Source: Acidobacteriota bacterium
Lineage (GTDB): Bacteria; Aquificota; Aquificia; Aquificales; Aquificaceae
Length of the DNA: 64,000 nucleotides
Assembly (NCBI GenBank): GCA_003696155.1
Contig: RFFP01000017.1
Location: 1-64,000 of the forward strand
Reading direction: 5' to 3'
Below the pieces are notes generated by a model. The model had not been told where the DNA came from. It searched no databases and saw only the letters and a list, made by a program, of their open reading frames with translations. Positions 9,138-34,394 of this stretch are shown here, piece after piece; positions within the stretch are counted from its first letter, which is position 1, and each line of letters begins with the position of its first letter. The translations under genes were made by a program, and so were the position numbers.

Positions 9138-10422
9138 CCTTCTTCTCCTCTTGTGGTTTTTCCACTTCCTTTATAACAGCCTTTGAAATTATATCATCCA
9201 GTGCCTTCTCCCTCCTTATATCCTCTATGAGGATACTGTAAAGGTTCTCCCTTTCAAGGGTGCTCTTCATCTCTTCAGGACTCTTTTGATACACCTTAGA
9301 GAGCTCTTCCACCTTCCTGTTGAGCTCCTCGGGCTCTGCTTCGATACCCTTAAGTTGTGCATACTTTTCTAGTATGTATCTTAGCTTTATGTTAAACACC
9401 GCCTGTGGCATGAGATCCTGAGCAAGGGCCTTGTAGTTTATATACTTAGGGTCTATACCCCAGCGGGTAAGTTCACTCACCCTTCTCTCCACAAGGTGGG
9501 AAAGTTCCCTCGATAGTACAGTCTGAGGCACCTGAAACTCATGAAGTTCTACAAGCTTTCTTGCTACAGCATCTGCTACCAGAGCCTTCCTAAGATTTTC
9601 CACGTTCTTCTTTACATCCTGTCTTATACTTTCCTCCGCATCCTTCCAACTGTCTCCTAAACCAACCTCCCTCGCAAAGTCATCGTTTAACTCTGGCAGG
9701 ACCTTCTCCTTTACACCCTTTATCCTTATATCTACCCTTGCCTTACCTGCAGGTTTACCTTCTACGTCATAGAGGGTAAGCTCCTCCAAGGTAAAGCTGT
9801 CCTCCTCTCTCTTACCTAGAAGCTCCTTCTCTATCTCCTCCCTGAAGGTCCTAGTCCCTATTATGCCCGATGTTTCTCCTTCATCCACCTCTCCACTTTC
9901 CATATCTTGTACCCTGTATTCGACGACTACCAAATCTCCTTCCCTTATCTCCCTATCTACGGGCTCCCATGTTGCGTGTTCCTCCCTCACCTCCTCAATT
10001 CTTTTCCTTACTAGATCTTCACTAAACTCCAACTTTTGGACCTCAACCTCCAAGCCCTCAATCCCCTTCAGCTCAAACTCTGGAGGCACCTCAAAGGATA
10101 CCTTATAGGTCAACTTAGGAGTAAGCTCATCGAGCCTCACGTCCTCCAGGTATATGTCTGCAACCGGTTTTAGCTTACTTTCCTCTATGGCCGTAGGGAG
10201 GGTCTTGTTGGCAACCCTCTTGCCCACTTCCTCCTGTATGTAGTCCTTAAACTTTGTCCTCAGTATCCACAGGGGAGCCTTACCCTTTCTAAAACCCTCC
10301 ACCTGTGCGTTCTGTTTTAAGTAGTTGTACACCTCCTCCAATGCGGACTTTACAGGCTCGCCTTCTATCTCAACGCTTAGGGCTTTAAAAAGACCTTCCC
10401 TTTCCTCAACGCTTACCTTCAT
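9124..10422 (-). CDS. tig: Trigger factor
   Basis: 432 aa, [17 protein letters not shown]-terminal motif; next to clpP. Confidence 0.93.
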
Positions 10423-26290: not shown

Positions 26291-26315
26291 ACTACATACT
26301 AAAAAGTTACATACA

Positions 26316-26390
26316 GGTAAGTTAGTGATTTTAATGTATCTTCTTGACTTGTCTTAGAGTTGTGCCTAAGCTATAGACAAGGAGGTGAGG
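26316..26390 (+). promoter_or_regulatory. Promoter/operator cassette A upstream of the flavodoxin-IorAB operon
   Basis: GGTAAGT(26316)-N18-TTCTTGAC-; TTGACT(26344)-N17-TAAGCT(26367)-ATAGACAAGGAGG; matches cassette at 30006. Confidence 0.7.
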
Positions 26391-26393
26391 CAT

Positions 26394-26543
26394 ATGAGAA
26401 GAGTTCTCATACCCATTGGTGATGCTTCAAAGATGGGGGCTGACCTGAACTACTTGGTGGACAAAAACCTCGTCTCGGTTAGAGCTTGGCCAGACATACT
26501 GGACATGATGAGAGAGTTTATAAGGCTACTAAAAGGTGCCTGA
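26394..26543 (+). CDS. 49-aa microprotein heading the operon
   Basis: ATG 4 nt after GGAGGTGAGG; MRRVLIPIGDASKMGADLNYLVDKNLVSVRAWPDILDMMREFIRLLKGA*; below the size cut-off of the ORF track. Confidence 0.6.
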   Translation: MRRVLIPIGDASKMGADLNYLVDKNLVSVRAWPDILDMMREFIRLLKGA

Positions 26544-26544
26544 T

Positions 26545-27102
26545 ATGGGTAGGGTGCTTGTCCTTTATGACAGTAGGACGGGGAACACGGAGAAGATGGC
26601 TCTGCTTGTGGCGGAGGGTGCCAGAAGGGTAGAGGGGATGGAGATAAGGATAAAGAGGGTAGAGGAGGCCACCAAGGAAGATGTGCTTTGGTGCGAGGGT
26701 ATGGCGGTGGGAACTCCAACTAACATGGGCATAGTCTCCTGGAAGTTAAAGCGTTTTTTTGACGATGTGATGGGAGAGCTATGGGGACAGATAGATGGAA
26801 AGATAGGCTGTGCCTTTTCCTCCTCCGGCGGTTGGGGAGGTGGCAGCGAGGTTGCATGCCTTTCTGTCCTTTACATGCTTATAAACTACGGCTTTCTGGT
26901 CTTTGGTCTTACAGACTACACGGATAGAAAGTTCACCCTTCACTACGGTGCAGTGGTGGCAGGGGAACCAAGGTCAGAGGAAGAAAGGGAGGCATGCCTT
27001 AGGCTTGGAAAGAGGCTTGCACAGTTCGTTGCAGCACTGTATGATGGAAGGAAGGAGCTTTTAGAAAGTATAAGAAGCTTTCCGGGGAAATTTCCCTGGT
27101 AG
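26545..27102 (+). CDS. Flavodoxin/WrbA-like NAD(P)H:quinone oxidoreductase family
   Basis: VLVLYDSRTGNTEKMALLVAEGA, GMAVGTPTNMGIVSWKLKRFFDD, SSSGGWGGGSE. Confidence 0.87.
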   Translation: MGRVLVLYDSRTGNTEKMALLVAEGARRVEGMEIRIKRVEEATKEDVLWCEGMAVGTPTNMGIVSWKLKRFFDDVMGELWGQIDGKIGCAFSSSGGWGGGSEVACLSVLYMLINYGFLVFGLTDYTDRKFTLHYGAVVAGEPRSEEEREACLRLGKRLAQFVAALYDGRKELLESIRSFPGKFPW

Positions 27103-27114
27103 GAGGTGTGAGCC

Positions 27115-27555
27115 GTGTTTGAGCTTTATATAAACGGAAAGCTTTACAAAACGAAGGCCTTTGAAGATGAGCCCCTTCTTTGGGTTATAAGGGAGAGGCT
27201 AAGACTAACGGGCACTAAGTTTGGATGTGGAATAGGTATGTGCGGTGCCTGCACCGTGCTTCTGGATGGAAAACCTGTAAGGTCCTGTCTTGTGCCCGTT
27301 AAAGAAGTGGTTGGCAAAAAGATACTCACCATAGAAGGCATCCCTGAGGACCATCCCGTAAAGAGGGCTTGGATAGCTCATCAGGTGCCCCAGTGTGGAT
27401 ACTGTCAGCCAGGCTTTATAGTGGAGGCTTACTCTCTCCTTTTGGAAAACCCAAGACCTACAAAGGAGCAAATATTGGAGAGGTTCTCCTCGCATCTGTG
27501 TAGGTGTGGAACCTACAGCAGGATACTTAAGGCCGTGGAAAGCCTAAGGAGGTGA
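27115..27555 (+). CDS. [2Fe-2S] small subunit of molybdenum hydroxylase (IorA/CoxS-like)
   Basis: [33 protein letters not shown]...[14 protein letters not shown] start. Confidence 0.93.
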
Positions 27556-27558
27556 GCC

Positions 27559-29655
27559 ATGCTGACAAGAAGGGAGCTCCTTAAAATGGGGGGTCTGACC
27601 CTTTCGGTTATGCTCATGCCCGATGGTTATAGACTCTTAAAGGCTCAGGAGGTGCCAAAAGGATACTCTCCCAACGTATGGATAAACCTTTCAATGGATA
27701 ACTACCTTACGGTGTTTGTAAACAAATCGGAAATGGGTCAGGGTGTCTACACGGGACTTCCTATGATAGTGGCCGAAGAGCTAGACTTCCCTTGGGACAG
27801 GGTAAGGGTCAAGCCCGCGCCTGCAGGAAAGCCCTACGTGGACCCCAAGATGGGTCTGCAACTTACCGGTGGAAGCACTAGCGTAAGGAACATGTACCAG
27901 ACTCTGCGCTTTGCGGGTGCGAGTATGAGGGAGATGCTACTTAGCTCTGCAAGCAAAAAGTTAGGCATACCAAAGGAGCATCTAAAAGCAGAAGACGGCT
28001 TTATAAGGGCGGGCGATAGGCTCTACCCATATGGAGAGTTTTCAGAGCTTGCTATGAAGGAGAACCTACCCTTAAGGCCTAGGCTCAAAGACAGCAAAGA
28101 CTTTAAGTACATAGGCAGATCTTTGCCAAGGCTTGACGTGCCCGAAAAGGTGCATGGAAAGGCGGTCTTTGGTATAGACACCTTCATGGACAACATGGTT
28201 TATGCAGTCATAGAGAGACCTCCCTACTTTGGGGCCAAAGCCCTAAGGGTGGACGCCTCTGGGGCAAGGTCCGTGCCGGGGGTCTTGGACGTCATCACCC
28301 TAACCTCAGGGGTGGCCGTGTGTGCAGACTCCTTTTGGACATGTCAAAAGGCAAGGGAAAAGCTAAAGGTAGAGTGGAGTGAGAGCTTTGTTAAGGGCTG
28401 GGAAGACGGGGATTTTGAGAAGTACTTTTTACATAAGCTTAAAGACAGGGGAACAGCCACGGAGAGGAAAGGGAACGCCGAAAGAGCGTACGAAATTGCT
28501 AAGTACAAGGTTGAAGAGACTTACGTACAACCCTATCTATACCATGCCACCATGGAGCCTATGGCCTGTCTTGCGTGGGTTGGTGAGAGAGAGTGCCTAG
28601 TGTATGCACCAACCCAATCGCAGACCTGGGTCCTAGAGGCTGCAAGGAGGATAAGCGGACTACCGGAGGATAGGATAAAGGTCATCACCACATACCTGGG
28701 CGGTGGTTTTGGAAGGAAGGCAAACGTGGAGTTTGTGGCAGAAGCCTTAGAGCTTTCCAAGAAGCTAAAAAGACCTGTAAAGCTCCTATACACAAGGGAG
28801 GACGATATAAGGTCTGGCTACTTCAGACCTTACAGCGCCACAAGGATAAGGTTATCTGCAGACGATAAGGGTAATGTGAACTCTCTTAGCTTCAAGATTG
28901 CAGTTCAGCCCCTACTCGGTGGAAGGGCCTCTGTGGAGGGCGTGGACAACATGTTTTATGACATACCCAACCTCCTAGTAGAAAGGGTGGATGTGGAGCT
29001 TCCGGTGAGCTCCTGGTTTTGGAGGTCTGTAGGTAGCACCCATAACGCCTTCAGCCTTGAGAATGCTCTTGACCGAATAGCTTACGAGAGCAAGCAGGAC
29101 CCTGTAGACCTTCGCCTTAGGCTTCTGAGGGACAACCCAGTAGCGCAAAGGGTGATTCAGAGGGCTGCAGAGCTTGCAGGGTGGGGCAGAAGACCTAAGC
29201 ACGGCCAAGCCATGGGCATAGCTTATCACTACTCCTTTGGGAGCCATGCCTGCCATGTGGCAGAGGTTTCCCTAGACAGGAAGAGTGGCAAGGTAAGGGT
29301 TCACAGGGTTATTGCGGTTATAGACGTGGGTCCTGTGATCGTTCATCCCGATCTGATAGTCTCTCAGGTTGAGGGTGGGGTAATTATGGGTTTGAGTATG
29401 GCTCTGAAGGAGGCGGTCTCCTTCTCCAACGGTGGTGTGGCAAACAACAACTTCCACACCTATTCCCTCCTCAGGATGGACCAAGCACCTAAGGTAGAGG
29501 TGCACATACTCACCTCAAGGAGGGAGATGGGCGGTGTGGGTGAGCCAGGGCTTCCGCCTACGGCACCCGCTGTAGCCAATGCCCTTCTCTGGGGCTATGG
29601 ACTTAGGATAAACCGCCTTCCCATGACCCCTGACTACATAAGGAGTCTGCTTTAG
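27559..29655 (+). CDS. Molybdopterin large subunit of xanthine dehydrogenase/IorB-type aldehyde oxidoreductase with twin-Arg N-terminus
   Basis: MLTRRELLKMGGLTLSVM Tat-like; TYLGGGFGRKANVEFV; GGVGEPGLPPTAPAVANAL. Confidence 0.93.
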   Translation: MLTRRELLKMGGLTLSVMLMPDGYRLLKAQEVPKGYSPNVWINLSMDNYLTVFVNKSEMGQGVYTGLPMIVAEELDFPWDRVRVKPAPAGKPYVDPKMGLQLTGGSTSVRNMYQTLRFAGASMREMLLSSASKKLGIPKEHLKAEDGFIRAGDRLYPYGEFSELAMKENLPLRPRLKDSKDFKYIGRSLPRLDVPEKVHGKAVFGIDTFMDNMVYAVIERPPYFGAKALRVDASGARSVPGVLDVITLTSGVAVCADSFWTCQKAREKLKVEWSESFVKGWEDGDFEKYFLHKLKDRGTATERKGNAERAYEIAKYKVEETYVQPYLYHATMEPMACLAWVGERECLVYAPTQSQTWVLEAARRISGLPEDRIKVITTYLGGGFGRKANVEFVAEALELSKKLKRPVKLLYTREDDIRSGYFRPYSATRIRLSADDKGNVNSLSFKIAVQPLLGGRASVEGVDNMFYDIPNLLVERVDVELPVSSWFWRSVGSTHNAFSLENALDRIAYESKQDPVDLRLRLLRDNPVAQRVIQRAAELAGWGRRPKHGQAMGIAYHYSFGSHACHVAEVSLDRKSGKVRVHRVIAVIDVGPVIVHPDLIVSQVEGGVIMGLSMALKEAVSFSNGGVANNNFHTYSLLRMDQAPKVEVHILTSRREMGGVGEPGLPPTAPAVANALLWGYGLRINRLPMTPDYIRSLL

Positions 29656-30002
29656 CCCTCCTTAGGTTTTTCTTTATTCAATAGGTATTCCAAATACTCC
29701 ACGCCCCAGCGATGCATAGAGTCAAAAATAACATCAAGGCTTTTGCCTATTTCTGTAAGCTCGTACTCCACCATGGGTGGAATTACGGGATAGACCCTTC
29801 TTTTTATAAGACCTGCTGCCTCTAGTTCCCTAAGCTGCTTTGAGAGCATCCTCTGGGTTATGCCCGGTATAGCCCTTTGGAGCTCGGAAAAACGCTTCTT
29901 ACCGTTAGTTAAATTCTTCAGTATATAGAGCTTCCACTTTCCGCTTATCAGCTGGATTACAACCTCTATAGGGCAGTGATGGTTTGGCTCCCCAAGTTTC
30001 AT
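29652..30002 (-). CDS. HxlR-family transcriptional regulator, single Cys
   Basis: HHCPIEVVIQLISGKWKLYILKNLTNGKKRFSELQRAIPGITQRMLSKQLRELEAAGLI. Confidence 0.93.
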   Translation of the reverse strand: MKLGEPNHHCPIEVVIQLISGKWKLYILKNLTNGKKRFSELQRAIPGITQRMLSKQLRELEAAGLIKRRVYPVIPPMVEYELTEIGKSLDVIFDSMHRWGVEYLEYLLNKEKPKEG

Positions 30003-30005
30003 GGA

Positions 30006-30073
30006 GGTAAGTATATATCAATCAGGTCCATTCTTGACAGTATGGCAAAGCCCGTCTAAACTATAGGCAAGGA
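30006..30073 (+). promoter_or_regulatory. Promoter/operator cassette B upstream of the CDGSH-quinone reductase operon
   Basis: GGTAAGT(30006)-N18-TTCTTGAC; TTGACA(30034)-N17-TAAACT(30057)-ATAGGCAAGGAGG. Confidence 0.7.
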
Positions 30074-30081
30074 GGAGGAAG

Positions 30082-30276
30082 ATGGCAAGATTGGTAAAAC
30101 TTACAGAGAAGGGACCCTACAAGTTAGAGGCTGGCGAGGAAACTTACTATCTTTGTCAGTGCGGGCTGTCTAAGAAGTTTCCCTTCTGTGATGGTTCTCA
30201 CAAACGGACAAAGGACGAGGAAGATGGCAAGCTATACTTATACGATGAGAGTTCAAGGGTAGAGATAAAGCTATAG
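30082..30276 (+). CDS. CDGSH-type iron-sulfur protein
   Basis: YYLCQCGLSKKFPFCDGSHK. Confidence 0.93.
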   Translation: MARLVKLTEKGPYKLEAGEETYYLCQCGLSKKFPFCDGSHKRTKDEEDGKLYLYDESSRVEIKL

Positions 30277-30285
30277 GGGGCTCCC

Positions 30286-30861
30286 GTGTTTCTAATTGTG
30301 TACGCACATCCCAATCCAAAGAGCTTTAACCATGCTATAAAGGATAGGGTCAGGCAAGTTCTTGAAAGCAAAGGTCATGTAGAGGTACGAGACCTATACG
30401 AGCTTTCCTTTAACCCTATCCTGAGCAGTAGAGATTTTGAGACATTACTATCTGGCGGTGTTCCTTTGGATATAGCCTTAGAGCAGGATTATATAAAAAA
30501 ATCTGAGCTTTTGGTCTTTGTATATCCCATCTGGTGGACAGGTATGCCTGCTATTCTCAAGGGATACATAGACAGGGTCTTCAGCTACGGCTTTGCCTAT
30601 GCAGAGAGGGACGGTCAGCTGGTTGGTCTTCTCACAGACAAGAAGGTGATAATTATAAACACTCTAGGAGCTTCTGAGCTTGACTACGTGCCATCGGGCA
30701 TGGAAGAGTGTCTAAAGAAAACAACAGACTTAGGCGTATTTAACTTCTGCGGTATGCAAGTGTTAAAACACATCTTCCTCTACTCCGTGCCTACGGTAAG
30801 CCATGAGGAGAGAGTGAACATGCTAGATAGGGTTCAAAAGGAACTGGAGGAGGTGCTATGA
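30286..30861 (+). CDS. NAD(P)H dehydrogenase (quinone), flavodoxin-like fold
   Basis: IVYAHPNPKSFNHAI, FVYPIWWTGMPAILKGYIDRVFSYGFAY. Confidence 0.93.
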   Translation: MFLIVYAHPNPKSFNHAIKDRVRQVLESKGHVEVRDLYELSFNPILSSRDFETLLSGGVPLDIALEQDYIKKSELLVFVYPIWWTGMPAILKGYIDRVFSYGFAYAERDGQLVGLLTDKKVIIINTLGASELDYVPSGMEECLKKTTDLGVFNFCGMQVLKHIFLYSVPTVSHEERVNMLDRVQKELEEVL

Positions 30862-31478
30862 AGGAATGTCTTAAGCTAATAAAGGAAAGAAGGTCCATAA
30901 CCTTCTTTGACCCAAGCAGAGAAGTGCCCGATGAGCTTATAAGGGAAATACTTGAGGTCTCTGCCACTGCACCCTCGGGCTACAACCTTCAACCCTGGGA
31001 GGTGATAGTGGTGAAGGACAGGGAAAAGAAGAGAATTCTAAAGGAAATATGCTACAACCAACAGAAGGTTGAGGATGCAAGCGCGAACATAGTGCTAATT
31101 GCTAACACAAGGGCAGGCTTTGAGCATGTGGATAAGGTTCTTGACAGCTGGGTGGAGCTTGGGTACATAAAACCTGAGAGCAGAGGGCAACTAAAGGCCC
31201 AGATAGTGGCAGGGTGGCAGGAACCCCAAAGGGCTTTCAGGAAGGCTGTAAGGGACACTGCCCTCTTTGGCATGACCATAATGATAGTGGCAAGAGCCTA
31301 TGGGCTTGAAACCCATCCCATGGAAGGCTACGATGAGCAGAAGCTCAAGGAATTTCTTAACATAGAGGAGCACAAAGTTGTTCCCATGATAGTGGCCATA
31401 GGATACAAAGATCCAAGCAAGGAGCTCCTGCCAAGGGCTTACAGGTTTTCCTTTGAGGAGTTTGTAAAGATAATTTAA
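30858..31478 (+). CDS. Nitroreductase family protein
   Basis: IKERRSITFFDPSREVP, SATAPSGYNLQPWEVIVV. Confidence 0.92.
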   Translation: MKECLKLIKERRSITFFDPSREVPDELIREILEVSATAPSGYNLQPWEVIVVKDREKKRILKEICYNQQKVEDASANIVLIANTRAGFEHVDKVLDSWVELGYIKPESRGQLKAQIVAGWQEPQRAFRKAVRDTALFGMTIMIVARAYGLETHPMEGYDEQKLKEFLNIEEHKVVPMIVAIGYKDPSKELLPRAYRFSFEEFVKII

Positions 31479-32227
31479 TGGAAGGCTACATCTTAGCCTT
31501 TCTGTCTGCTACGCTTGCGGGTGCCATAAATGCGGTTGCGGGTGGTGGCACACTGCTCACCTTCCCATCCCTTCTTTGGCTTGGCCTTGACCCTATAGTT
31601 GCCAACATAACCAACACGTTAGCCCTCTGGGTAGGCTCTTTGAGCGGTGCCTGGGGTTTTAGAAAAAGGTTTGTAGATGTGAAGGGTCTCATATTACCCT
31701 TTTTAGTTTCCTCTCTCTTTGGAGCTTTCCTTGGAGCCCTGTTGTTAATAAGAACACCCTCCTCTACCTTCAAGGACTTGGTGCCCTTTCTCATCTTTTT
31801 TGCAGTGTTCCTGCTGGCCTTTGGGGAGGTAATAAGAAGATACCTTGTTAAAAGCCTCTTGAAAGGTGAAAAGGCTTTCTATTTTGCCTTTTTCCTACAG
31901 TTTTTGACCGGTGTGTACGGCAGTTACTTTGGAGCTGGCATAGGTATAATGATGCTTGCCAGTCTTTCGCTCTCAGGTATGAACAACATACACAACGCCA
32001 ACGCCCTTAAGAACCTTCTAGGTTTTTCTATAAACGCCTTGGGTTCTGCTGTATTTCTTCTGAGCGGTAAAGTAAGCTGGCCTTTTGCCCTATCTATGAT
32101 GCCGGGGTTTGCCCTTGGGGGTTTCTTGGGTGCTTGGGTTTCACAAAAATTCAAACCTTCTATAGTAAAAACCCTTGTAGTCCTTTGGGGTCTGTTTATC
32201 GGACTTCTGATGATGCTAAAGGGATAG
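31478..32227 (+). CDS. TauE/SafE (TSUP) family permease
   Basis: AGAINAVAGGGTLLTFPSLLWLGL, GVYGSYFGAGIGIMM. Confidence 0.92.
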   Translation: MEGYILAFLSATLAGAINAVAGGGTLLTFPSLLWLGLDPIVANITNTLALWVGSLSGAWGFRKRFVDVKGLILPFLVSSLFGAFLGALLLIRTPSSTFKDLVPFLIFFAVFLLAFGEVIRRYLVKSLLKGEKAFYFAFFLQFLTGVYGSYFGAGIGIMMLASLSLSGMNNIHNANALKNLLGFSINALGSAVFLLSGKVSWPFALSMMPGFALGGFLGAWVSQKFKPSIVKTLVVLWGLFIGLLMMLKG

Positions 32228-32879: not shown

Positions 32880-33486
32880 CACCGTCAACATCCAAGGACT
32901 CACCAAGGTGTAGGTATGCCATAGGCTTGTGGTAAACCTTTCTGTAATCTCTTGCCATAGACCAGTCAGCAAGGCTGTCGCCCACATAAACCCCACCGTC
33001 TAAACCAAGGGCTTCAACGCAAAAATGGAGGGCATAAGGGTTGGGCTTTCTGAGTTCCTTCTGGGGTATGGTGTCCTCGTTCACTATACAGTCGAAAAAC
33101 CCCCACAGTCCAAACCTCTCGAAGGCATACCTTAGGTCTTCTTCTGGCCTTCCCGTCACCACCCCTAGGGGCAGGCCTTTTGACCTTAAGTTTATAAAAA
33201 ACTCTCTGTTCAGCAGAAGGCTTTCCTTATCCCTCAGGCTGTGATAGATGGGGTCAAAGGTCTGTATGACCTCCTCCAGGTTTGCATGCCCTCCGTATTC
33301 CTTTATGACCTCCAGGGTGGCAAGCCAATCGTTGTTTATACCCCTTGAAAACTTTATCCTCCTTACATCATCTATGGGGATTTCTTTCCCCAAGAATCTC
33401 TCGGCGGTATGTTTTATGGCATAGTGATAAGATTCCCTGACGTTTATTATCACACCGTCCACATCAAATATTACTCCCTTCTTCAT
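32818..33486 (-). CDS. HAD-superfamily phosphatase
   Basis: VIFDVDGVIINV, LGVVTGRPEEDL, KPNPY, VYVGDSLADWSMAR. Confidence 0.9.
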   Translation of the reverse strand: MKKGVIFDVDGVIINVRESYHYAIKHTAERFLGKEIPIDDVRRIKFSRGINNDWLATLEVIKEYGGHANLEEVIQTFDPIYHSLRDKESLLLNREFFINLRSKGLPLGVVTGRPEEDLRYAFERFGLWGFFDCIVNEDTIPQKELRKPNPYALHFCVEALGLDGGVYVGDSLADWSMARDYRKVYHKPMAYLHLGESLDVDGVRYSSPERLFQDLQEVLQNL

Positions 33487-34394
33487 CCTGCCACGAGCTC
33501 AGAGCTTGTCTTTGAAAGAAGAAACCTCATAAACCTGCTGGCAAGGTAAGTAAGCCTCTCGCTCTCCGAGTATATTATGTAGTACCACCTTACTGCATTA
33601 AAGCCTCTGATCTTTACCGGGACTATGCTACCCTCCTCCAGATCCTTCTCTATAAGACCTTTGGAAAGAAAGCTTGTGCCGTAGCCCCTCTTGACCATGC
33701 TTAGTATGGACCTGCCACAGTTTATTTCAATCCTTATGTTGAGCTTTTCAAAGGCCACACCAAGCCTTTCCAACTCTTCCCTAACAACCTTCCTCGTACC
33801 CGAGCTTACCTCTCTGAATATTAAGTCCACTCCGTAAAGCTCCTCCGGTTCTATCTCTCCCCTTTCGGCGAAGGGATGGGAAGGATGGACGAAAAATATA
33901 ACCTCATCCATGAACCACTTTATGGAGCTAAACCTTTCCGATGGCTCCCTCTCTATTATGCCAAGGTTTAGAACGCCAGAAGCCACAGACTCCTCTATGT
34001 GTTGAGAGTTATCCACCATAGCCCTTATGGATATATTAGGAAGCTGGGAGTGGAACTCTACAAGGAGCTCTGGGACTTTGTATTCGCTGAGGGTTGTGCT
34101 TATACCAAGGAAAAGGGTATCCTTAAAATCCTTCTTTATCCTTGCCATCTCCTCCATAAGGCTCTCATAGTCTGCAAGAAGGCTCTTGGCTATTTCGTAT
34201 ATCCGCTTTCCCTCATCGGTAAGCACTATCTTTCCGCCCTGCCTCTGAAACAACTTGGCGCCTATTATTCTTTCAAGAGCCTTGATCTGTTGGGTTACCG
34301 CTGGCTGAGTTATGTATAGTATTTCAGAAGCTTTTGAAAAGCTGCCCAGGTCTGCTACCGCTACGAAGGTCTTAAGCTTGCTTATATCTATCAT
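33483..34394 (-). CDS. LysR-family transcriptional regulator
   Basis: LKTFVAVADLGSFSKASEILYITQPAVTQQIKALE. Confidence 0.94.
   Translation of the reverse strand: MIDISKLKTFVAVADLGSFSKASEILYITQPAVTQQIKALERIIGAKLFQRQGGKIVLTDEGKRIYEIAKSLLADYESLMEEMARIKKDFKDTLFLGISTTLSEYKVPELLVEFHSQLPNISIRAMVDNSQHIEESVASGVLNLGIIEREPSERFSSIKWFMDEVIFFVHPSHPFAERGEIEPEELYGVDLIFREVSSGTRKVVREELERLGVAFEKLNIRIEINCGRSILSMVKRGYGTSFLSKGLIEKDLEEGSIVPVKIRGFNAVRWYYIIYSESERLTYLASRFMRFLLSKTSSELVAG

What the first reader, a model, noticed from the sequence alone, without database searches (positions are those of the whole stretch)
26316..32227. Two operons with superimposable promoter cassettes flank a single-Cys HxlR regulator: candidate electrophile/aldehyde/quinone-response system
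Seen: GGTAAGT-N18-TTCTTGAC-(TTGACW-N17-TAARCT)-ATAGRCAAGGAGG occurs at 26316 and 30006 with identical spacing throughout. The first drives microprotein-flavodoxin-IorA-IorB, the second CDGSH-quinone reductase-nitroreductase-TauE; the hxlR gene lies between, and its start codon is adjacent to cassette B. Known: HxlR-family regulators such as YodB and QorR sense quinones/electrophiles through an N-terminal Cys and control quinone reductases and nitroreductases. Inference: HxlR binds both cassettes and coordinates a molybdenum-hydroxylase-centred detox module. I know of no described regulon pairing IorAB with this set.
Basis: partly seen in the sequence, partly recalled or inferred. Interest (0 to 1): 0.75.

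Follow-up and report, generated by a model that had tools for sequence, protein, structure and literature searches.

The report
HxlR operator pair controlling electrophile-detox operons
In a hot-spring bacterium of the family Aquificaceae, two detoxification operons carry the same binding site for a small thiol-sensing regulator encoded between them, and the same site-regulator pair recurs across the family, which shows that a well-known kind of chemical-stress switch runs a previously undescribed gene set there.

Summary
The two cassettes are where stated, and nothing within two mismatches occurs elsewhere in the 1.47-Mb genome, so this is not a generic promoter. Comparison explains the cassette. 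It is an 18-bp HxlR operator (26305-26322 and 29995-30012; ideal form ACTTACA-N4-TGTAAGT) placed exactly 24 bp from right arm to -35 box. A matrix trained only on other genera ranks these two positions first and second in the window. In 136 Aquificota genomes, strong sites occur in 24 of 28 genomes with this HxlR and in 0 of 108 without it. Unlinked sites in other genomes again precede the CDGSH gene. The operator matches DNA co-crystallised with B. subtilis HxlR. So HxlR very probably controls both operons and itself. Corrections: the "microprotein" is an internally deleted DJ-1/PfpI gene; "IorAB" is closest to membrane aldehyde dehydrogenase; the conserved partner is CDGSH, not the molybdoenzyme; the ATAGRCAAGGAGG part is not conserved. 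The inducer is inferred: carbonyl or quinone electrophiles through the invariant N-terminal Cys. Formaldehyde Cys-Lys crosslinking is disfavoured because the Lys is absent. Activation versus repression is unresolved; I lean to activation. A new regulon of a known regulator kind; no wet-lab data.

The parts
26305..26322 (+). HxlR operator O1, cassette A: AGTTACATACAGGTAAGT
   Evidence: Top-scoring place in the window for an O1 matrix trained only on B-type sites of other genera, with no A site and no member of this genus (18.2 bits); maximum dyad symmetry at this register in both A and B sets
26344..26372 (+). Promoter A: TTGACT-N17-TAAGCT (-35 / -10)
   Evidence: O1 to -35 distance identical in 24 B and 6 A sites
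26394..26543 (+). 49-aa remnant of a DJ-1/PfpI gene (internal deletion; N- and C-terminal ends kept)
   Evidence: Full-length 182-aa homologues at the same place in relatives (L036, L038, L039, L040); VDKNLVSVRAWPDILDMMREFIRLLKG vs VDKNLVSGRAWPDLPEIMREFLKLLKG; homologue in L054 is Pfam DJ-1_PfpI 9e-40
26536..27102 (+). WrbA-like flavodoxin (ORF from GTG at 26536; the in-frame ATG at 26545 is the likelier start)
   Evidence: Pfam Flavodoxin_1; NCBIfam NAD(P)H:quinone oxidoreductase below cut-off
27115..27555 (+). iorA-like 2Fe-2S small subunit of molybdenum aldehyde dehydrogenase
   Evidence: Pfam Fer2_2
27559..29655 (+). iorB-like molybdopterin large subunit, N-terminal TRREL motif suggestive of Tat export
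   Evidence: Pfam MoCoBD_1/2; best solved relative 8gy3_C, aldehyde dehydrogenase large subunit, over residues 33-695, 1.8e-76
29652..30002 (-). hxlR: 116-aa single-Cys HxlR/DUF24 regulator (Cys10)
   Evidence: Pfam HxlR 1.2e-34; N-terminal Cys present in all 29 aligned homologues
29995..30012 (+). HxlR operator O1, cassette B: AGTTTCATGGAGGTAAGT; left arm overlaps the hxlR start codon
   Evidence: Second-best O1 place in the window (16.4 bits) and best when the match extends to the -35 (37.4 bits; next non-cassette 1.3) with out-of-genus training
30010..30015 (-). Putative -10 (TATACT) of the hxlR gene, inside the right arm of O1 (autoregulation)
   Evidence: AGTATAT found in all 24 B sites aligned and absent from the A sites of relatives, which have no divergent hxlR; role inferred
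30034..30062 (+). Promoter B: TTGACA-N17-TAAACT (-35 / -10)
30082..30276 (+). CDGSH (NEET-type) iron-sulfur protein, 64 aa; conserved core target of the regulon
   Evidence: Pfam zf-CDGSH 8e-13; next to or controlled from HxlR sites in most genomes
30286..30861 (+). KefF-like flavodoxin-fold quinone reductase
   Evidence: Pfam Flavodoxin_2 7e-46
30858..31478 (+). Nitroreductase-family flavoenzyme
   Evidence: Pfam Nitroreductase 1.6e-29
31478..32227 (+). TauE/SafE-family membrane protein, last gene of operon B
   Evidence: Pfam TauE 1.7e-38

Best explanation
The two cassettes are paired promoter-operators of the HxlR/DUF24 regulator encoded between them. An HxlR dimer binds the 18-bp dyad O1 (ideal ACTTACA-N4-TGTAAGT) at a fixed distance upstream of the -35 box of both operons, centred near -66. 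In many relatives a second site, O2, abuts the -35. In cassette B, O1 also covers the start and -10 of hxlR, so HxlR regulates itself. Modification of the single N-terminal Cys10 by reactive electrophiles (quinones, enals, other carbonyls) switches HxlR and co-induces a flavodoxin/aldehyde dehydrogenase operon and a CDGSH/quinone reductase/nitroreductase/TauE operon. Shown by sequence: the site, its geometry, its genome-wide rarity, its co-occurrence with HxlR, and the gene content. Inferred: binding, inducer class, Cys10 chemistry and sign of control. I lean to activation of the operons with repression of hxlR (about 55%), over repression of everything (about 40%).
For: (1) A matrix trained only on 17 B-type sites from other genera ranks 29995 (37.4 bits) and 26305 (22.9) first and second of all window positions; third is 1.3. 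(2) A sequence-only model finds just these two strong sites in the own genome (49.0 and 36.7 bits, both in its training set; next 14.5). (3) In 136 Aquificota genomes, sites of at least 27 bits occur in 24 of 28 genomes with HxlR and 0 of 108 without; genus-collapsed 7 of 8 versus 0 of 22. The one HxlR-positive genome outside the family (G097) has the one strong site outside it (40.3 bits, held out of training), divergent from hxlR and before an old yellow enzyme-IorA-IorB-aldo-keto reductase operon. (4) Held-out sites unlinked to hxlR in G057 (perfect palindrome ACTTACAGATCTGTAAGT), G027, G025 and G031 all precede the CDGSH gene. (5) HxlR-less relatives keep CDGSH but lack the operator; G026 keeps its sisters' -35/-10 without the operator. 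(6) O1 to -35 spacing is constant in 30 of 30 sites, while the -35 to -10 spacer varies from 16 to 19. (7) DNA co-crystallised with B. subtilis HxlR is CAGTATCCTCGAGGATACTG (PMC7835342), the same 7-4-7 dyad as AGTATCC-TAAA-GGATAGT in L043. (8) 35 of 77 HxlR homologues, mostly of Firmicutes and Proteobacteria, have AGTACGCAC upstream of their own gene, versus 0.1 in shuffles; in many it is followed by AGTGTC-N6-GTATACT-like dyads with the same 22-bp and 18-bp spacing as in Aquificaceae. (9) The N-terminal Cys is invariant. For activation: O1 lies upstream of the -35, and the regulator scores nearer to HypR and HxlR, both positive regulators (PMC6943732, PMC7835342), than to the repressors YodB and QsrR.
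Against: No binding or expression data. Four HxlR-bearing genomes of genus g5 lack the strong site; they have a shifted dyad or a weak match before CDGSH instead. G032 has the shifted dyad but no HxlR was found. The A-type sites of relatives score poorly on the matrix built from B sites; their match is mainly the dyad and the spacing. O2 is degenerate in this genus. Near-consensus -35 boxes (TTGACA in 20 of 24 B sites), and promoter retention after operator loss in G026, fit repression as well as activation. The 24 B sites were picked by a pattern that fixed the AGTATAT-TTGAC distance to 24-26 bp, so the spacing claim rests on all of them falling at 24 and on the A sites, which were picked without that constraint. 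Genomes are related, so the Fisher values overstate independence.
Confidence: 0.8

Rival explanations
1. Pure repressor, as for YodB or QsrR: reduced HxlR sits on O1/O2, blocks the -35 of both operons and the -10 of hxlR, and leaves the DNA when Cys10 is alkylated.
For: -35 boxes are near consensus (TTGACA in 20 of 24 B sites) and -10 boxes mostly 4-5 of 6, so the promoters should fire unaided; O2 abuts the -35 in several genera; G026 lost regulator and operator but kept the promoter.
Against: In this genus O2 is degenerate and O1 is centred about 30 bp upstream of the -35, an awkward place for steric repression yet held at constant spacing; the regulator scores closer to HypR and HxlR than to YodB and QsrR.
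Confidence: 0.4
2. Formaldehyde switch as in B. subtilis HxlR: formaldehyde crosslinks Cys to the Lys two residues on, and HxlR activates the operons.
For: Same operator architecture as the HxlR co-crystal DNA; aldehyde-handling enzymes in the operons; positive control in B. subtilis (PMC7835342).
Against: The Lys needed for the Cys-CH2-Lys bridge is absent in all homologues aligned here (CP[VIA][ESN]); no hps/phi (hxlAB-type) genes were seen in the loci examined.
Confidence: 0.07
3. Generic strong promoter of this organism, unrelated to HxlR.
For: TTCTTGAC also occurs elsewhere in the window (7 places in all).
Against: Only two places in the genome match the core with fewer than 3 mismatches; strong sites track HxlR presence across 136 genomes.
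Confidence: 0.02
4. Cassette A is a decayed copy of B without function; only operon B is controlled.
For: In this species the first gene of operon A is gutted, and cassette A was not recovered in G040.
Against: The O1 dyad and the 24-bp spacing are kept upstream of operon A in six species of the genus; the window's A site scores above its B site on the O1-only matrix.
Confidence: 0.1

Closest known systems
B. subtilis HxlR / hxlAB
   Same: Family, N-terminal Cys, operator of the form AGTATCC-N4-GGATACT, positive control as a precedent
   Different: Targets are CDGSH, quinone reductase, nitroreductase and aldehyde dehydrogenase operons instead of the formaldehyde-fixing hxlAB genes; the Lys of the formaldehyde crosslink is absent
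B. subtilis HypR / HypO
   Same: CP[VI]E Cys motif, similar DNA-recognition region (ITQRML..QLRELE), regulation of a flavin reductase under thiol stress
   Different: No partner Cys for an intersubunit disulfide in the window protein (only Cys10); much larger regulon; Aquificota
B. subtilis YodB / CatR and S. aureus QsrR
   Same: DUF24 electrophile sensors controlling quinone reductases and nitroreductases
   Different: Repressors, more distant in sequence (YodB 65 bits, QsrR 34-35, against 101 for HypR); operator position differs as far as known
Membrane aldehyde dehydrogenase (PDB 8GY3)
   Same: Closest solved relative of the iorB-like protein over its whole length
   Different: No cytochrome subunit gene was seen in the window operon; substrate untested

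Membership tests
HxlR/DUF24 regulator | HxlR-type winged helix domain (PF01638) | tested here: met
   1.2e-34, cut-off passed
HxlR/DUF24 regulator | Conserved N-terminal redox-active Cys | tested here: met
   Present in all 29 aligned homologues; reactivity not testable
HxlR/DUF24 regulator | Dyad operator of AGTATCC-N4-GGATACT type near the target promoter | tested here: met
Formaldehyde-sensing HxlR (Cys-x-Lys) | Lys two residues after the N-terminal Cys | tested here: not met
   CP[VIA][ESN] in the aligned homologues (requirement)
HypR two-Cys disulfide switch | Second Cys able to pair across the dimer | tested here: not met
   The window protein has only Cys10 (sequence)
Positive regulator (HxlR/HypR-like) | Increases transcription of targets | not testable with these tools
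   Only operator position speaks to it
Isoquinoline 1-oxidoreductase IorAB | Closest characterised relative or substrate is IorAB | tested here: inconclusive
   Best solved relative is an aldehyde dehydrogenase; no NCBIfam cut-off reached
CDGSH (NEET) protein | CxCx2(S/T)x3PxCDG(S/A/T)H motif | tested here: met
   CQCGLSKKFPFCDGSH in the sequence; Pfam zf-CDGSH

The most novel reading that the evidence does not exclude
In Aquificaceae a CDGSH (NEET-type) iron-sulfur protein is the core effector of an HxlR-controlled electrophile response, with flavo- and molybdo-enzymes as interchangeable additions. HxlR works from one upstream operator by direct activation of the operons while repressing its own gene from the same site.
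Probability: 0.35. Interest if true: 0.6.

Novelty: new member of a known kind. Interest (0 to 1): 0.42.

Why it matters
It gives a complete testable prediction (regulator, operator, targets) for electrophile stress in deep-branching thermophiles, where I found no description of such a response in the papers searched. It ties a CDGSH protein, a family often of unclear function in bacteria, to a thiol-based stress regulator. It also shows that the HxlR composite operator is shared by Aquificota, Firmicutes and Proteobacteria, which helps predict HxlR targets in other genomes.

Tried and rejected
Generic promoter: rejected. Cassette as first drawn, with GGTAAGT as left end and ATAGRCAAGGAGG as right end: neither boundary is conserved; replaced by O1 plus -35. 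The YCTA-N5-TAGR dyad over the -10 that I first suspected: 11 places in the window and not conserved in relatives. First own-genome pattern search had a one-base spacing error and found nothing; repeated correctly. Paper searches for HxlR with YodB/quinone/operator, with CDGSH, and with nitroreductase found nothing; HxlR with Aquific found two papers with one passing mention each. The HypR structure paper was not held, so statements on the HypR disulfide rest on my own knowledge.
Full report
OBSERVATION. The cassettes at 26316 and 30006 are exactly as described. The conserved-block pattern is absent from 100 shuffles of the window, and in the 1.47-Mb genome only these two places match the core with fewer than three mismatches.

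WHAT THE CASSETTE IS. I collected HxlR orthologues from 64 genomes of the family (29 genomes hit) and read their neighbourhoods. Two record titles name Aquificaceae. In 24 loci hxlR is divergent from an operon and the intergenic region holds AGTATAT at exactly 24 bp from TTGAC (the search pattern allowed 24-26). The same spacing holds in six species upstream of the flavodoxin/IorAB operon (cassette A), where sites were picked by TCTTGAC alone. Both sets, scored separately, have their highest 7-4-7 dyad symmetry in the same register, -39 to -22 from the first T of TTGAC. The shared element is ASTTWCM-N4-KGWWAST (O1). GGTAAGT is its right arm. The AGTATAT of B sites also reads as TATACT, a -10 box, toward hxlR. 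The A sites of relatives, which have no divergent hxlR, lack AGTATAT but keep the dyad, which separates operator from hxlR promoter.

HELD-OUT TESTS. (a) A matrix made from B sites of other genera only gives 37.4 bits at 29995, 22.9 at 26305, and 1.3 for the third place in the window; with the 18-bp O1 alone, 26305 is the best of all window positions. (b) A sequence-only model of the sites found four hxlR-unlinked matches not used in training (G057, G027, G025, G031). All four lie just upstream of a CDGSH gene, although the model holds no coding sequence beyond the hxlR start; the G057 site is the perfect palindrome ACTTACAGATCTGTAAGT, while those of G025 and G031 are weak (19-21 bits). (c) Among 136 Aquificota genomes, sites of at least 27 bits occur in 24 of 28 with HxlR and 0 of 108 without (Fisher 7e-23; genus-collapsed 4e-6; relatedness makes both optimistic). 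The one HxlR-positive genome outside the family, G097, carries the one strong site outside it. (d) CDGSH genes of HxlR-less genomes lack the operator; G026 retains its sister genomes' promoter without it. (e) The DNA crystallised with B. subtilis HxlR, CAGTATCCTCGAGGATACTG (PMC7835342), has the same dyad. (f) 35 of 77 HxlR homologues, mostly in Firmicutes and Proteobacteria, have the AGTACGCAC element upstream of their own gene (0.1 expected from shuffles), and many continue with AGTGTC-N6-GTATACT-like dyads at the same 22-bp spacing as in Aquificaceae.

GENE CONTENT. Across loci the HxlR-associated genes include CDGSH, a SAM methyltransferase, old yellow enzyme, Zn-alcohol dehydrogenase, aldo-keto reductase, DJ-1/PfpI, LigB-type dioxygenase, WrbA-like flavodoxin, KefF-like quinone reductase, nitroreductase, IorAB-like molybdoenzyme and TauE; a protein I read as a pirin by sequence inspection sits in two CDGSH operons. 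These are mostly enzymes that act on carbonyls, enones, quinones and nitro compounds. The iorB-like protein matches the large subunit of an aldehyde dehydrogenase (8gy3_C) over its whole length. The 49-aa microprotein is a DJ-1/PfpI gene that lost its middle; relatives keep 182-aa versions at the same place.

MECHANISM. Inference: electrophiles modify Cys10, the only Cys of the window protein and invariant in the alignment. A formaldehyde Cys-Lys bridge is unlikely because the Lys is missing. A HypR-type intersubunit disulfide is unlikely because the second Cys is missing. Operator position upstream of the -35, its fixed spacing, and closer similarity to HypR and HxlR than to YodB and QsrR lean to activation with autorepression. 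Near-consensus -35 boxes and promoter retention in G026 lean to repression. I keep 55/40.

STATUS. The regulator and operator belong to a known kind. The regulon, with CDGSH as conserved target, was not found in the papers searched, a partial library. Nothing here is experimental.

Noticed in passing
26394-26543 (+): In-frame 49-aa remnant of a DJ-1/PfpI gene, kept directly upstream of the flavodoxin gene; perhaps retained for translational coupling. A similar remnant stands in L037.
   Followed up: yes
26367-26385 and 30057-30075: The stretch from -10 to Shine-Dalgarno is 17/19 identical between the two operons only in this genome, not in relatives; cause unknown (leader function, conversion or chance).
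   Followed up: partly
L046:3761-4186 (+), L093:4553-4963 (-): A conserved protein of about 140 aa, probably membrane-bound by its sequence and with no Pfam match, accompanies CDGSH in many relatives; absent from the window's operon.
   Followed up: partly
L036:10495-10722 (+): Conserved 75-aa protein without Pfam match, encoded between CDGSH and the methyltransferase in several relatives.
   Followed up: no
L060 (about 9492-9852): hxlR of G001 is broken (stops and frame breaks), yet its operator cassette is intact at 52 bits and the CDGSH gene is kept.
   Followed up: partly
L212-L215: In genus g5 the CDGSH promoter carries a shifted dyad (AAGTATA-N6-TATACTT) while hxlR sits elsewhere; possible operator re-modelling.
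   Followed up: no
33483-34394 (-): LysR regulator close to, but below the cut-off of, the selenium-metabolism LysR model NF040786 (223.8 against 250 bits).
   Followed up: no
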